A stretch of 18,429 nt of DNA from Methanocellales archaeon. Lineage in GTDB: Archaea; Halobacteriota; UBA148; JAUWXC01. Position 1 is the stretch's first letter. Each line of letters starts with the position of its first letter. The stretch covers positions 1 through 18,429 of the forward strand of contig JAUWXC010000001.1 in assembly GCA_030616565.1 (NCBI GenBank). The letters run 5' to 3'. The notes beneath the pieces are model-generated. The model saw only the letters and a list, made by a program, of their open reading frames with translations. It ran no database searches and was not told where the DNA came from. The position numbers and the translations under genes are program-made. This document shows positions 2 through 4,501 of this stretch, one piece after another.

Positions 2-781
2 ATCAGTACGATCACGATAGAAATAAAGAACGGCGGATCCTATGTGGATGTACTTGAAGTGGTGGAAGAAATTCCCAAAGAAATCGCGCAGAACGTAAAC
101 CTGCTTGGATTTGACACGCCTCCCAGTGAAGTCATAGAAGAGGACCCTGTTGTGAAATGGATTATCGAGGGACTTGGACCGTATGAAACCAGGTCAATCT
201 CATACAATACCCCAAAAATCTTGGACGAATACTCTCCCTATGTATACTGGCCGTTGAGGCAGATAAACGTCATCTATGAGGCCCCTCCGCCTGATTTGAT
301 TAAGATTTCAGAAATAAGCGCCCCCACCCTATACCCGGGCCGAACTGAAAAAGTTTCGATCAACCTGATGAATCTGGATAGAACCCCATTTGATATAACT
401 GCAAGACTCGAAACGCCGGCTAACTGGAAGGTAACTCCCGATGACATCGTCACGACCCTGTCCCCCAGAGGCTCCAGCACACTGATGTTCTATATAACCC
501 CGCCTTCCTATATCGAGCCCGGCACCTACACCATCTCAGCTGAAGTCCTCTACGACGGGAGGACGCTTACCAAGGATGCCACGGTCATCGTTCAACCGGC
601 ATGGGCGCCACCTCTGAGGTATATATTATTAGGGTTGATTATCATACTGATTATAGCCATAATAACCGTCACCAAAATGCATCGTGAGAGACGGTGGGAT
701 GGATTTAGAGGCAGCCGCATAAACCTGCTAAACCAGATCAAACAGGAGATAAAAAGTAGCAGGAGGCAGAGAAGGAGATGA
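2..781 (+). CDS. C-terminal part of a membrane-anchored exported protein with a NEW3-like domain
   Basis: The frame is open to the left edge of the window, so this is the C-terminal 259 residues of a longer protein; a GTG at 44 is probably only an internal Val. Roughly residues 110-200 of the fragment look like an NPCBM-associated/NEW3 (CARDB-like) beta-sandwich: a run with PTLYPGRTEKVSINLMN, then ANWKVTP, then YIEPGTYTISAEV. A single hydrophobic helix (about residues 207-224, YILLGLIIILIIAIITV) follows, then a strongly basic tail of about 35 residues ending in RRQRRR. This predicts an outside domain, one membrane pass and a short cytoplasmic tail. The TGA stop lies 1 bp before the ATG of the MinD-like gene, so the two are probably translated from one mRNA and may work together at the membrane. 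The ligand or partner is unknown. Confidence 0.8.
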   Translation: MSTITIEIKNGGSYVDVLEVVEEIPKEIAQNVNLLGFDTPPSEVIEEDPVVKWIIEGLGPYETRSISYNTPKILDEYSPYVYWPLRQINVIYEAPPPDLIKISEISAPTLYPGRTEKVSINLMNLDRTPFDITARLETPANWKVTPDDIVTTLSPRGSSTLMFYITPPSYIEPGTYTISAEVLYDGRTLTKDATVIVQPAWAPPLRYILLGLIIILIIAIITVTKMHRERRWDGFRGSRINLLNQIKQEIKSSRRQRRR

Positions 782-782
782 T

Positions 783-3218
783 ATGAGAGTCATAGGGGTT
801 GTATCTGGCAAAGGAGGAGTCGGAAAGACGACAACTGTGGCGAATTTAGGTGCAGCTCTGGCTTCTGTGTTTGGCAGGAGAGTTCTCGTGATCGATGCCA
901 ACTTCACCACGCCTGACGTTGGATTGCAACTGGGCATGTATCGTTTTCCAAACACACTTGAAGACGTGCTGGATAAAAGGGTGCCAAGCTCTCAGGCAAT
1001 TTATGACCATCCCAGTGGTATGGGACTCATTTCAGCATCTCTGGCAGCAGAGGAGATGGATGCACGTGGCCTAAAACGGGTTTTAAAAGAGTTAAAAGGA
1101 TACGAGATAGTCCTGATTGACTCTGCTCCGGGTGCAGGAGAGGATGCTGCCACCATCATAGATGCCTGTGATGAAATCTTAATCGTGACCAACCCAGAAT
1201 TCCCCGCGATCACGGACAGCCTCAAGATAATGGAACTTGCCAGATCACTGGATATCCCGATCAGGGGCATCGTATTGAACCGAGTAATGAGAGAAGGGTA
1301 TGAGCTTTCAGTTTATGAGGTCGAATCCACCTGTGATGCGCCCGTCATCGCCATCATTCCAGAAGATGCTGAAGTCAGAAAAAGCATATCTGATATGAAT
1401 CCCGTTGTATTGAACTCTCCTGATTCCCCTGCAGCGATTGAATTCACGAGACTGGCTGCCCATCTAATCGGAAGAGAGTACGTTGCGCCTGTTGGAGCAC
1501 TGGACAAGGTGATAGAGTCCACCGCCGGAGTGGCAACTAAAACCACTGGCGTGTTGAGTGAGACTGAGAAGCGGGCTGTTGGCGTATTTAGCATCATCAT
1601 CGGATTGTTTGTCGGATTGGCGAACAGAATGGCAGAATGCATCAAATTCTTGATAGGATGTCCGATTAAATTAATTGGTCTGTTAAGGAGAGTTGCTGGA
1701 TCGTTCATTTGGGTATTGAGTGGAATTAAAGAGGACACCAAGTTATTGGGGCGGTATCTGGCCCAACTGATAAGGCGCCTAATCGAATGCATTCTCTGGT
1801 TATTAAGCGGCGTCGGCGGGTTAATCGTTTTATTTGCAAGTAAAACGGTGAACTCGCTACGAAGAGCAGCTGAATTGTTTGTCGGCTTATTAAGCGGCCT
1901 CGCTGGATCGTTTGTCATGTCGCTGAATAAGGTTAAAGACGACATCAAATCATTTGTGGGTTGGCTGACCCTATTGTTGCAAAGAATCATCGGCCTGCCG
2001 ACAAGAGTTGCGGGACTATTTGTTAATTTTGCGAAAAAGATTGCCGAATTGTTTGCTGTATTTTTGATAGTCATTGTTGCATCATTTGTAGGACTAACAG
2101 GTAAGACATCCGAATACCTCAAATCATTTGCAAGAAATCTGACCCAATTAGCAAGATATCTAGTAGAATATGTTGTCAGATTATGGGATAAGATAAAAAC
2201 AAGCATTAGAGGGTTATCGGGCGAGGTTAAAGAAGGCAGCGTCCAATTAGCAACCGGGGCGAAAGAGTCCACTGTTGAATTAACGAGCAGGACTACCGAA
2301 CTATTAAGTGGAGCGGAAGAGCGAACCGTCGAAGTATTCAGGAGTTTCTTGAAGAATATTAGTGACTCGTTAAGCGAGGCTGCTAGTTCGTTCATAGGGG
2401 CGATGGGGGGAACAAAGGAAAACGTCAAACTGCTTGCAAACTACATAATTCGATTAATCGAATATCTGATAGAATGCGTCATTCAATTTATAAAAAGAGT
2501 CACCAGTTTGTTGATCAAACCCAAAGAAGTTGAAGAAGTCGAATTGCTAGAAATAAGGGAAAGGGAGATGGTAACCGAGATCCCTGTGCCCGTTGAATGG
2601 CCTGCCAGGGCGGAGGAGTATCCAGCGGGAATGTTTGATGCCGTCACGAGGTCGTTTACTGATTTGCTGAGCAAAGTTGAGAAAAATATCAAATTGTTTG
2701 TAGAATACGTAATTCAACTGATAAGATATCTAATAGAGTTACTTATTAGATCGGCTAGCGAGATCAAGGTGGCTCTTATCAAGCTGACAATCAAGGTCAG
2801 TGGATTTTTGAGCATAGCTAAAGAACGCACTGTTGGACTGTTGAATAATATTGCCGAGTTGTCGACCATATCGCTGGCTATGGCCAAGGAATATCTCGAC
2901 CAACTGATGAGGTATCTAATCGAATGCACAGGCAGACTGGCTAAGAGGATTGCTGAGCTATCGACTGAGTTGACGAGCAAAGCCAAAGAAAGCATTGACC
3001 AATCCCTGTGTAAGGTGAGAGAGAGCATTCCTATTCTAGCAACCAAGGTCGTCGAATTCTCGAATAAACTTGCGGAAGCACTGGCTAGACTGACAGACAA
3101 GCTCGAAGAAAACGTCAAACTGTTAGCAGGATACTTGGGTAGGCTGATAACGCATTTGATAGAATTCGTTATCCAATTTGCAAAAAGTATCATCGGTTTG
3201 TTGGTCAAACCCAAATAA
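783..3218 (+). CDS. MinD/ParA-family ATPase fused to a long array of amphipathic helical repeats
   Basis: Residues 1 to about 237 are a complete archaeal MinD-type ATPase. The deviant Walker A motif is KGGVGKTT (K10, K15), the switch motif has D38 in VLVIDAN, and Walker B is VLIDSAPG (D113). MinD proteins dimerise on ATP and bind membranes through a short C-terminal amphipathic helix; archaeal ones are usually about 260 residues. Here a tail of about 570 residues replaces that helix. It is built from degenerate units of the type K-x-E-x-x-K-x-L-x-x-Y-L-x-x-L-I-R-Y-L-I-E, followed by another hydrophobic helix such as CVIQFIKRVTSLL. Clear copies lie near 1721, 2409, 2676 and 3099. An acidic/proline linker (EIPVPVEWPARAEEYP) separates later blocks. 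I infer a multivalent peripheral membrane binder. Translation stops at TAA 3216-3218, but the array continues in the same frame to 4307, so the original gene may have encoded about 1174 residues. Confidence 0.85.
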   Translation: MRVIGVVSGKGGVGKTTTVANLGAALASVFGRRVLVIDANFTTPDVGLQLGMYRFPNTLEDVLDKRVPSSQAIYDHPSGMGLISASLAAEEMDARGLKRVLKELKGYEIVLIDSAPGAGEDAATIIDACDEILIVTNPEFPAITDSLKIMELARSLDIPIRGIVLNRVMREGYELSVYEVESTCDAPVIAIIPEDAEVRKSISDMNPVVLNSPDSPAAIEFTRLAAHLIGREYVAPVGALDKVIESTAGVATKTTGVLSETEKRAVGVFSIIIGLFVGLANRMAECIKFLIGCPIKLIGLLRRVAGSFIWVLSGIKEDTKLLGRYLAQLIRRLIECILWLLSGVGGLIVLFASKTVNSLRRAAELFVGLLSGLAGSFVMSLNKVKDDIKSFVGWLTLLLQRIIGLPTRVAGLFVNFAKKIAELFAVFLIVIVASFVGLTGKTSEYLKSFARNLTQLARYLVEYVVRLWDKIKTSIRGLSGEVKEGSVQLATGAKESTVELTSRTTELLSGAEERTVEVFRSFLKNISDSLSEAASSFIGAMGGTKENVKLLANYIIRLIEYLIECVIQFIKRVTSLLIKPKEVEEVELLEIREREMVTEIPVPVEWPARAEEYPAGMFDAVTRSFTDLLSKVEKNIKLFVEYVIQLIRYLIELLIRSASEIKVALIKLTIKVSGFLSIAKERTVGLLNNIAELSTISLAMAKEYLDQLMRYLIECTGRLAKRIAELSTELTSKAKESIDQSLCKVRESIPILATKVVEFSNKLAEALARLTDKLEENVKLLAGYLGRLITHLIEFVIQFAKSIIGLLVKPK

Positions 3219-3304
3219 GTTGAGTTGCCAGAAATAAGGGAAAGGGAGATGGTAACCGAGATCCCTGTGCCCGTTGAATGGCCTGCCAGGGCGGAGGAGT
3301 ATCC
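2550..3304 (+). repeat. 681-bp tandem repeat with 74-bp identical cores
   Basis: Bases 2550-2623 and 3231-3304 are identical over 74 bp. They are offset by 681 bp, which is 227 codons and so keeps frame. Similarity continues well beyond the core: the segment coding for VTRSFTDLLS recurs almost unchanged at about 2644 and 3325. A third partial copy of the second half of the unit begins near 3806, where the segment around CGAATGCACA at 2921 recurs at 3812, an offset of 891 bp. The pattern fits recent tandem duplication or gene conversion inside the coding region. Confidence 0.9.
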
Positions 3305-4307
3305 TCCAGGGGTGTTTGATACCGTCACGAGGTCGTTTACTGATTTGCTGAGTCAAATTGAGGAAAGTATCAAATCATTTGTGGAATACGTGATTCAATT
3401 AATAAAACGCCTAGTCGAATCGCTTGTTAGATCAACCAGCGAGATTAAGGTGACTCTTATCGGGTTGGCGATCAAAACCAGTGGATTTTTGAGTGGGACT
3501 AAAGAACGCACTGTTGGGCTGTTGAATAACATTGCTGACCTGTCGACCAGATCACTGACCATGGTCAAGGAACATCTCAAGCTATTTGTGAGACGCTTGA
3601 TAAGATTGATTAAACCTGAAGAAGTTGAATTGCCAAGAGAGGTCGCAGTCGAGGCCCCCATACCCGTTGAACCCGAGCTATTTCCTGAATTGGAAGAGCG
3701 TCCGAGCATATTTGACACCGTTGCAAGGCCGTTTACTGGATTGTCATATAAAATTGAGGAAGGCATCAAATCATTTGTGGAATACCTAATTCAACTGATA
3801 AGATATCTAATCGAATGCACAGGCAGACTGGCTGAGAGGATCGCTGAGCTATCGGTTGAGCTGGCGAGCAAAGCCAGAGAAGGTATTGACCAATTCCTGA
3901 GTAAGGTCAGAGAGGGCACTCCTATCCTAGCAGCCAAGGTCGCCGAATTCTTGAATAATACTACGGAAGCACTGGCTAGACTGACGGACAATATCGAAGA
4001 AAATGTCAAACTGTTAGCAGGATACTTGAGCAGGCTGATAACGCATTTGATAGAATGTATTATCAGATTAGTCAAGAGGATTGCCAGCCTATTGAAGAGA
4101 GAGGGTAGGGTGGAATACGTAAAGCTACCCGAAGTGGAGGTAACTGAGGTAGGAGAGGGAGTTGTTGAGTTGGAAATAAAACCCTCTGAACCAGTTACTA
4201 TGGGTGGACGCGTCAGCGATTCGGTTAAGAAGGTCGTCGAATCGTTGGTCAGATTAATGAACAGGGGCAAAGAATGTATTCGCCGAGTTTTGATGAAAAG
4301 AGAGTAA
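3225..4307 (+). CDS. In-frame continuation of the amphipathic repeat array after the TAA stop
   Basis: This frame is the same as that of the MinD-like gene and starts right after its TAA; the first usable start is TTG at 3225. It has no ATPase domain. It opens with the same linker found at 2550 (EIREREMVTEIPVPVEW) and contains further helix units near 3354, 3750, 3990 and 4209, interrupted by a second linker (VAVEAPIPVEPELFPELEE). The C-terminus is basic (RGKECIRRVLMKRE). Reading through the stop would give one continuous protein. Three explanations remain: a nonsense mutation with the downstream part now dead, reinitiation at TTG to make a separate repeat protein, or a sequencing/strain difference. 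The frame stays open for 360 codons with conserved repeats, so loss of coding must be recent if it happened. No Shine-Dalgarno sequence is evident at the TTG. Confidence 0.6.
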   Translation: MPEIREREMVTEIPVPVEWPARAEEYPPGVFDTVTRSFTDLLSQIEESIKSFVEYVIQLIKRLVESLVRSTSEIKVTLIGLAIKTSGFLSGTKERTVGLLNNIADLSTRSLTMVKEHLKLFVRRLIRLIKPEEVELPREVAVEAPIPVEPELFPELEERPSIFDTVARPFTGLSYKIEEGIKSFVEYLIQLIRYLIECTGRLAERIAELSVELASKAREGIDQFLSKVREGTPILAAKVAEFLNNTTEALARLTDNIEENVKLLAGYLSRLITHLIECIIRLVKRIASLLKREGRVEYVKLPEVEVTEVGEGVVELEIKPSEPVTMGGRVSDSVKKVVESLVRLMNRGKECIRRVLMKRE

Positions 4308-4501
4308 AATTTTCAACTGCCATCAATCCTGAACTTCCGGCGATCACGAACAGTCTGAAAATGATAAAAGTGGCAAAGTCGACCGGCACTCACGTCAGAG
4401 GGGAAGAATACATCATCACGCCATGGAGTAAATTGATGGGTTTCTTAAGACATACCAGTAGAAAATGTAGAAAGAAAATAAGGAAGATTTCAGCACGTTG
4501 A
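4274..4501 (+). pseudogene. Remnant of a second MinD-like ATPase domain
   Basis: A short open frame overlaps the end of the repeat array in another frame. Its bases 4316-4402 encode a stretch beginning TAINPELPAITNSLK that aligns without gaps to residues 135 onward of the intact MinD domain (VTNPEFPAITDSLK, bases 1185-1268), with 14 of 27 positions identical. The P-loop and Walker B regions are absent, and the rest of the frame is a basic tail (RKCRKKIRKISAR) I cannot assign. This is best read as the leftover of a duplicated MinD-repeat gene, not a functional gene. It might still be translated as a 75-residue basic peptide from the ATG at 4274, but there is no good ribosome-binding site. Confidence 0.6.

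What the first reader, a model, noticed from the sequence alone, without database searches (positions are those of the whole stretch)
783..4307. MinD-type ATPase with a giant amphipathic-helix repeat tail
The ATPase domain is complete, but in place of the single short membrane-targeting helix typical of MinD there are about 11-12 degenerate helix units (KxEExxKxLxxYLxxLIRYLIE type) over several hundred residues. A MinD with many membrane-binding helices could act as a cooperative membrane scaffold, curvature sensor or organiser of internal membranes. I know of no described MinD of this form. The fusion and repeats are seen; the membrane role is inferred from MinD biology and helix composition.
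Basis: partly seen in the sequence, partly recalled or inferred. Interest (0 to 1): 0.75.

Follow-up and report, generated by a model that had tools for sequence, protein, structure and literature searches.

The report
MinD ATPase with giant lipid-coating-type tail
In a little-known group of small-genome archaea, a protein that normally positions things inside cells using a tiny membrane anchor instead carries a huge tail of helices that look built to coat a membrane, which could be an energy-switched membrane scaffold of an unusual kind.

Summary
Confirmed with one correction. Window 783-3218 encodes an archaeal MinD (811 aa): 236-residue ATPase head plus 575-residue tail. Two same-genus genomes, one a closed chromosome, carry the fusion without a stop (964 and 1615 aa), so it is not an assembly join. 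The tail is a class-A amphipathic helix repeat: 99-100 degree periodicity, 11-residue autocorrelation, hydrophobic moment 0.42 (apolipoprotein A-I: 0.39 in print), K/R flanking and D/E opposite the apolar face. SMC/Rad50-type coils of the same genomes have another period, lower moment and no charge pattern of that strength. Three or four segments near the head could span a membrane. Clear tail matches occur in 3 of 392 phylum genomes, all one genus. A paralogue ends instead in a short MinD-type membrane peptide. In both paralogous loci the upstream gene encodes a single-span NEW3-domain surface protein with similar cytoplasmic ends. Best reading: an ATP-switched MinD whose short anchor became a membrane-coating scaffold that clusters its NEW3 partner. 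Membrane binding and partner contact are inferred; AlphaFold gave helices but no confident tail fold.

The parts
2..781 (+). NEW3 (NPCBM_assoc) surface protein, 3' part (259 aa; cut by the contig end): NEW3 domain, one C-terminal hydrophobic helix, basic cytoplasmic end
   Evidence: Pfam PF10633 E 1.5e-7; 87% identical to residues 313-572 of the 572-aa gene in L038; 1-nt gap to MinD also in L037 and L038
783..1490 (+). MinD ATPase head, residues 1-236, deviant Walker A SGKGGVGKTT
   Evidence: TIGR01969 over cut-off; 1hyq E 3.6e-43; dN/dS 0.105 against L038; AlphaFold pLDDT 64-91 in the first 23 ten-residue blocks
1491..3215 (+). Repeat tail, residues 237-811: class-A, 11-residue-period amphipathic helices with a proline-bearing linker
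   Evidence: orthologous tails in L037 and L038
1575..2096 (+). Proximal tail part holding four TM-like segments (residues 265-283, 333-351, 363-381, 420-438)
   Evidence: Kyte-Doolittle 19-residue means 1.83, 2.29, 1.65, 2.67
2520..2624 (+). Acidic, proline-bearing linker between helix blocks (residues 580-614); repeated after the stop
   Evidence: proline-free runs; residues 579-616 non-helical in the model (low confidence); DNA repeat D8
3216..3218 (+). In-frame TAA that ends the 811-aa ORF
3219..4307 (+). In-frame continuation of the tail after the stop, ending like the C-termini of the intact relatives
   Evidence: dN/dS 0.40, 95% CI 0.29-0.56 against L038
4319..4402 (+). Remnant of a tailless MinD paralogue, of the kind found intact in the same gene neighbourhood in L046
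   Evidence: 61% over residues 139-166 of the tailless MinD, E 2.7e-4; DNA repeat D13

Best explanation
An archaeal MinD ATPase in which the usual short C-terminal membrane peptide has been replaced by a giant, modular amphipathic-helix tail. SHOWN by sequence: MinD head under strong constraint; tail of 575 to 1379 residues rich in 11-residue-period, class-A amphipathic helix, with proline-bearing linkers and 3-4 very hydrophobic segments next to the head; tail length varies by duplication of its modules; pairing with a single-span NEW3 surface protein in both paralogous loci. INFERRED: the tail lies on (and near the head dips into) the cytoplasmic leaflet. ATP-driven head dimerisation joins two tails, so the protein forms a stable, high-avidity patch rather than a quickly exchanging one. 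The NEW3 protein's cytoplasmic end (L..[IL]KQE[MI] in a mostly basic tail) contacts the MinD head, so the patch collects or positions the NEW3 protein and through it the surface proteins outside.
For: Head. Tail periodicity 99-100 degrees, 0 of 200 shuffles; lag-11 autocorrelation 0.30-0.35 in all three tails against at most 0.17 in 16 segments from 8 SMC/Rad50-type loci of the same genomes, whose peak is 103-105 degrees (several of these loci are orthologues or parts of one protein). Charge placement: K/R at mean 119-126 degrees, D/E at 149-152 degrees from the apolar centre in four tail sequences; label shuffles reach the difference 0-4 times of 5000 at minimum moment 0.4 and 0-5 times at 0.3; three coil controls 302-3343 times at 0.4 and 165-1271 at 0.3 (first run). 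Mean moment 0.41-0.42, hydrophobic fraction 0.43-0.50; yardsticks in PMC5889406 Table 1: ApoA-I 0.39, CCT-alpha 0.48, alpha-synuclein 0.30, Plin4 0.257. Tail under purifying selection: dN/dS 0.37, CI 0.26-0.53. Tailless paralogue ends ...KEYKVELWGRVRQFFRF. NEW3 gene upstream in both paralogous settings; cytoplasmic ends alike.
Against: AlphaFold gave long helices but pLDDT below 50 for the whole tail, with only 6-7 aligned sequences. Substitutions between window and L038 tails do not clearly keep hydropathy class beyond a codon-model expectation: 80 of 158 against 79.8 (whole tail), 40 of 85 against 40.9 (proximal), 62 of 106 against 53.7 (post-stop); apolar/charged swaps are fewer than expected (8 against 13.5; 4 against 6.2; 3 against 9.7), no test made. 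Tail dN/dS is 3-4 times that of the head. The best solved-structure match of the tail module is a coiled-coil-like design (9r1o, E 0.0095). The window's copy is cut by a stop. The NEW3 contact rests on gene order and a short peptide. I know of no lipid-binding data. The tail was found in one genus only.
Confidence: 0.55

Rival explanations
1. Membrane-spanning tail: the proximal part (residues 265-438) makes real transmembrane helices or hairpins, so the protein is an integral membrane protein and the ATPase is permanently tethered; the distal amphipathic helices are a cytoplasmic leaflet skirt.
For: Four 19-residue segments with Kyte-Doolittle mean at least 1.6 in the window and in L038, three in L037.
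Against: Helical moment is high there too (0.436 in residues 237-470). The fourth segment is not in L037's list. Topology was not assessed.
Confidence: 0.2
2. Lipid-body or polymer-granule coat: the tail works like Plin4 and covers an apolar surface other than the bilayer, and the MinD head spaces or shares out the granules, as ParA-type McdA does for carboxysomes (recalled).
For: 11-residue period, great length and class-A charge pattern as in perilipins and apolipoproteins; weak Pfam match to Apolipoprotein, E 6.6e-4, below its cut-off, and PF01442 among the precomputed domains of the L037 protein.
Against: The tail is more hydrophobic and more amphipathic than Plin4, which I take to favour bilayers; the neighbouring gene encodes a membrane and surface protein; granule genes were not looked for.
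Confidence: 0.1
3. Soluble hendecad coiled coil or helical bundle: an 11-residue period without lipid contact, an oligomerising stalk for the MinD head.
For: 11/3 periodicity also defines right-handed coiled coils (recalled); long predicted helices (low confidence); the tail-module profile's best solved-structure match is 9r1o, sc-apCC-6-DPH-NR (by its name a designed coiled coil), E 0.0095.
Against: Mean hydrophobicity 0.41-0.51 against 0.04-0.28 for SMC/Rad50-type coils; apolar residues spread to about 120 degrees from the centre of the face; TM-like stretches. The 9r1o match is weak.
Confidence: 0.1
4. Loosely constrained repeat expansion with little function: duplications run on and the window copy is already truncated.
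For: Stop codon in the window; tail lengths 575, 728 and 1379; tail dN/dS 3-4 times the head's.
Against: dN/dS 0.37-0.40 with upper bounds 0.53-0.56; two long open copies; C-terminal end alike in L037, L038 and the window's post-stop piece.
Confidence: 0.1

Closest known systems
Archaeal MinD (TIGR01969; MinD-1, 1hyq, from A. fulgidus as recalled)
   Same: ATPase head over the family cut-off
   Different: The paralogue and 10 of the 14 ordinary relatives whose ends I could read finish in a short basic peptide that looks amphipathic (by eye); here 575-1379 residues follow the head
Haloferax volcanii MinD4
   Same: Archaeal MinD with an extended C-terminal tail whose truncation impairs motility (PMC11621097, passages, citing Nussbaum 2020)
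   Different: I did not obtain its sequence. The one same-phylum comparator with a long C-tail that I measured (L097) has an acidic, non-amphipathic 308-residue tail, moment 0.13
Engineered E. coli MinD with two MTS copies (PMC8155659, passages)
   Same: More membrane helix per MinD; standing waves seen
   Different: Synthetic, one extra copy, works with MinE, which was found in 0 of 5 of these genomes
Perilipin 4 giant amphipathic helix (PMC5889406, abstract and one results section)
   Same: 11-residue period, hundreds of residues, lipid-surface coat
   Different: Plin4 has regular 33-mers and weak amphipathicity (0.257); an ATPase head there is not known to me; here repeats are irregular, broken by prolines and strongly amphipathic
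Apolipoprotein A1/A4/E (PF01442)
   Same: Class-A charge layout (recalled for apolipoproteins); E 6.6e-4
   Different: Far below the curated cut-off (19.9 against 90 bits); no evidence of common descent

Membership tests
Archaeal MinD (TIGR01969) | Family profile score over the curated cut-off | tested here: met
   207.6 against 201.75 bits
Archaeal MinD (TIGR01969) | Deviant Walker A motif KGGxGKT with the signature lysine | tested here: met
   SGKGGVGKTT; K10 and K15 invariant in 7 aligned proteins
Archaeal MinD (TIGR01969) | Single short C-terminal amphipathic membrane-targeting sequence | tested here: inconclusive
   No single short MTS; amphipathic helices follow the head in greatly expanded form. 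The tailless paralogue has the short form by eye
Archaeal MinD (TIGR01969) | ATP-dependent dimerisation and membrane binding | not testable with these tools
   needs protein
Bacterial MinCDE system | MinE partner | tested here: not met
   PF03776 in 0 of 5 genomes, two of them under 85% complete; of 14 control genomes it rang in 3, E. coli among them
Apolipoprotein A1/A4/E (PF01442) | Profile score over cut-off | tested here: not met
   19.9 against 90 bits
Class-A, 11-residue amphipathic helix (a structural type, not a descent family) | About 98-100 degree periodicity with lag-11 signal, K/R flanking and D/E opposite the apolar face | tested here: met
Perilipin 4-like giant helix | Uninterrupted 33-residue tandem repeats | tested here: not met
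   Hydropathy lag 33 (0.12-0.20) weaker than lag 11 (0.30-0.35); unit spacing irregular; prolines interrupt

The most novel reading that the evidence does not exclude
An ATP-switched membrane coat: a MinD ATPase whose apolipoprotein-like tail, up to 1379 residues, paves the inner leaflet and, through a one-span partner, fixes where surface proteins (in two relatives near multiheme cytochromes) are displayed. That would be a cytoskeleton-like membrane scaffold built from a MinD, with tail length tuned by repeat duplication.
Probability: 0.3. Interest if true: 0.82.

Novelty: new variant of a known kind. Interest (0 to 1): 0.62.

Why it matters
MinD proteins are understood as weak, reversible membrane binders, and that weakness lets them form moving patterns (recalled; the effect of a stronger anchor is shown in PMC8155659, passages). 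A natural MinD whose tail is about 40 to 90 times the length of E. coli MinD's 15-residue anchor should behave as a near-permanent scaffold, a natural test of how anchor strength sets MinD behaviour. It also shows a lipid-surface helix type best known from lipoproteins and lipid-droplet coats, at extreme length, in an archaeon, and points to a transmembrane partner for an archaeal MinD.

Tried and rejected
Assembly error as the source of the fusion: rejected, since two other genomes, one a closed chromosome, hold it open. Ordinary heptad coiled coil: disfavoured by the same-genome SMC/Rad50-type comparison; one of the three coils (L078) shows a weaker charge trend in the same direction (165 and 302 of 5000). 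Disordered tail like those of P0003 and P0004 (by eye): rejected by composition and periodicity. Free-standing relatives of the tail: the search with the post-stop piece found 1 protein, the window's own; the search with 841 tail residues of L037 found 2, L037's own and L038's; both scored only the roughly 8000 candidates sharing most words. Other MinDs with similar tails: of 11 comparator loci chosen for long frames, 8 gave a frame with KGGxGKT; 2 of these had a C-tail over 60 aa, neither amphipathic; one (L099) is cut by its contig end. Weak tail match in G390 (E 9.6e-4, two stops inside): dropped as chance. NEW3 search: 4 of 11 genomes, three of the genus and a partial 31% match in G009. 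Substitution-class test: see the Against line. AlphaFold tail models were too weak for a fold search, so none was run. In one search, 12 of 26 loci gave no frame by my start rule; of the 14 left, 10 end in a short basic amphipathic-looking peptide by eye. The name Met33H is in no held paper and not in the taxonomy by the name tried. PMC11588486: two passages seen, nothing on tails.
Full report
WHAT IS THERE. The window is contig 55 of a 782,578-base, 63% complete archaeal genome bin. The ORF at 783-3218 encodes 811 residues; a TAA at 3216-3218 ends it. The frame stays open for 362 more codons (3219-4304), which hold further copies of the same tail (75% identical to residues 585-714; two pairs of 300-nt direct repeats at 84 and 85%). 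Residues 1-236 are an archaeal MinD: TIGR01969 at 207.6 bits against a cut-off of 201.75; best solved relative 1hyq, E 3.6e-43; deviant Walker A intact.

IS THE FUSION REAL. Yes. Two other genomes of the same genus hold it without any stop: CP061209.1 (closed 987-kb chromosome, 964 aa; L038) and JAUWQV010000003.1 (1615 aa; L037). The heads are 95-97% identical (224, 228 and 226 of 236 residues) and under strong constraint (window against L038 dN/dS 0.105, CI 0.04-0.19). The tail evolves faster but is constrained (0.366, CI 0.26-0.53), and so is the part after the window's stop (0.403, CI 0.29-0.56). That part also ends like the C-termini of both intact relatives. The stop is therefore probably recent, or an error in the assembly; these tools cannot tell which.

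WHAT THE TAIL IS. It is helical in character and strongly amphipathic. The mean 18-residue hydrophobic moment is 0.423, against 0.218 +/- 0.014 in 200 shuffles; the periodicity peak at 100 degrees was reached by none of 200 shuffles; the strongest hydropathy autocorrelation in the window's tail is at 11 residues. Printed moments for known lipid-binding helices are 0.39 (ApoA-I), 0.48 (CCT-alpha), 0.30 (alpha-synuclein) and 0.257 (Plin4, 968 residues) (PMC5889406 Table 1); these tails have 0.41-0.42. SMC/Rad50-type coils from the same genomes peak at 103-105 degrees with little lag-11 signal (at most 0.17), moments of 0.25-0.32 and hydrophobicity of 0.04-0.28 (16 segments from 8 loci, not all independent). 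With all charged residues given equal hydropathy, K/R sit at 119-126 degrees and D/E at 149-152 degrees from the centre of the apolar face in four tail sequences; shuffling the charge labels reaches the difference 0-4 times in 5000 at a minimum moment of 0.4 (0-5 times at 0.3), against 302-3343 (165-1271) in three coil controls, of which one, L078, leans the same way. This is the class-A layout of apolipoproteins (class name recalled). Near the head, four segments in the window and L038 and three in L037 are hydrophobic enough to span a membrane. Proline-bearing linkers separate the helix blocks. AlphaFold predicts long helices (such as 617-730), but with pLDDT below 50 for the whole tail and only 6-7 sequences, so it gives no arrangement. 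The tail-module profile matched 2 solved sequences up to E 1: 9r1o, by its name a designed coiled coil (E 0.0095), and a peptidase (E 0.65). Counting units with a seed gives 6 before the stop, 3 after it, 6 in L038 and 12 in L037.

WHERE IT OCCURS. A search with the window's tail gave clear matches in 3 of 392 genomes of the phylum, all in one genus of four held genomes; the fourth, 94% complete, shows neither tail nor NEW3 gene. A match in a fourth genome (E 9.6e-4, with stops) was dropped. Among 5.8 billion proteins the tail search found only L037's and L038's proteins. Its sensitivity depends on shared five-residue words and on length limits, so remote tails could be missed.

NEIGHBOURS. 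In all three tailed loci the gene just upstream, one base away, encodes a NEW3-domain protein (572-579 aa where complete; likely signal peptide by eye) with one C-terminal hydrophobic helix and a basic cytoplasmic end...LNQIKQEIKSSRRQRRR. G001 also has a paralogous locus: two NEW3 genes, then, 134 bases on, a 251-aa MinD without the tail that ends ...KEYKVELWGRVRQFFRF, like a usual MTS, then a THEP1-type NTPase, Trm1, FtsJ and an HtpX-like peptidase (names by likeness to the window's genes). The two NEW3 proteins there end in GGVSLL.LKQEM and a few more residues; aligned on KQE the shared pattern is L..[IL]KQE[MI]. The same run of four genes lies downstream of the tailed gene in the window, with a PIN-domain gene added and a remnant of the tailless MinD before it (4319-4402; 61%, E 2.7e-4). 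So the tailed pair stands in the window where the tailless pair stands in G001. In L037 and L038 the tailed pair stands near Ig-like surface proteins and multiheme cytochromes with 16 and 13 CXXCH motifs.

HOW IT MOST LIKELY WORKS. The tailless paralogue suggests that a short membrane anchor is the older state. The tail multiplies that kind of element many times over, so I read it as an extreme membrane anchor and coat on the cytoplasmic side, switched or arranged by the ATPase head. A longer or doubled MTS turns E. coli MinD patterns into standing waves (PMC8155659, passages); a tail of this size should bind far more firmly. MinE was found in 0 of 5 genomes and archaellin in 0 of 5, while FtsZ/CetZ-family genes are in 5 of 5 (three of the five are 63-86% complete), so neither MinE-driven oscillation nor archaellum placement fits well. 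The constant NEW3 neighbour with its alike cytoplasmic ends is my candidate partner. The membrane location, the ATP switch and the partner contact are inference.

AGAINST. Hydropathy class is not clearly kept beyond a codon-model expectation in tail substitutions (80 of 158 against 79.8). The tail is confined to one genus as far as seen. The window's own copy is interrupted. The only structure match of the tail of note leans to a coiled-coil design. No experimental evidence is known to me.

KNOWN OR NEW. The head is a known kind; a MinD with an extended functional tail is known (Haloferax MinD4; PMC11621097, passages); giant amphipathic helices are known in perilipin 4. I saw no report of the combination in the listings of five MinD searches of open-licence papers. 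I rate it a new variant of a known kind.

Noticed in passing
G000-G004 (genomes of the window's order): MCR alpha (PF02249) is missing in 5 of 5 genomes, including the closed 987-kb chromosome, although the public records are named Methanosarcinales and Methanocellales; the lineage looks non-methanogenic, with small genomes.
   Followed up: partly
window 4319-4402; L047 4782-5102; L046 4690-5445: The tailless MinD upstream of the THEP1-type NTPase is intact in G001, a 106-aa C-terminal piece in G004 and a short remnant in the window: it seems to have been lost more than once.
   Followed up: partly
L037 9815-13219; L038 7869-9710: Multiheme cytochromes (16 and 13 CXXCH, plus small genes with 2), in L037 with a thioredoxin-like protein bearing PGF-CTERM and a DsbD/CcdA-like gene, near the tailed MinD; the L038 one matches MtrC/MtrF-like domains.
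   Followed up: no
window 1313-2428 (-): A 371-aa open frame antisense to head and tail (477 aa at the like place in L038), probably a by-product of the repeat's codon use.
   Followed up: no
G001:C5:100929-102500: A search match to the second NEW3 gene included one TAG; by coordinates it lies before the start of the open gene L046 2942-4555.
   Followed up: partly
G000:C8, G002:C11: Another MinD-like ATPase heads a TadA/TadC-like (type IV pilus-type) gene run by sequence look; not the same gene.
   Followed up: no
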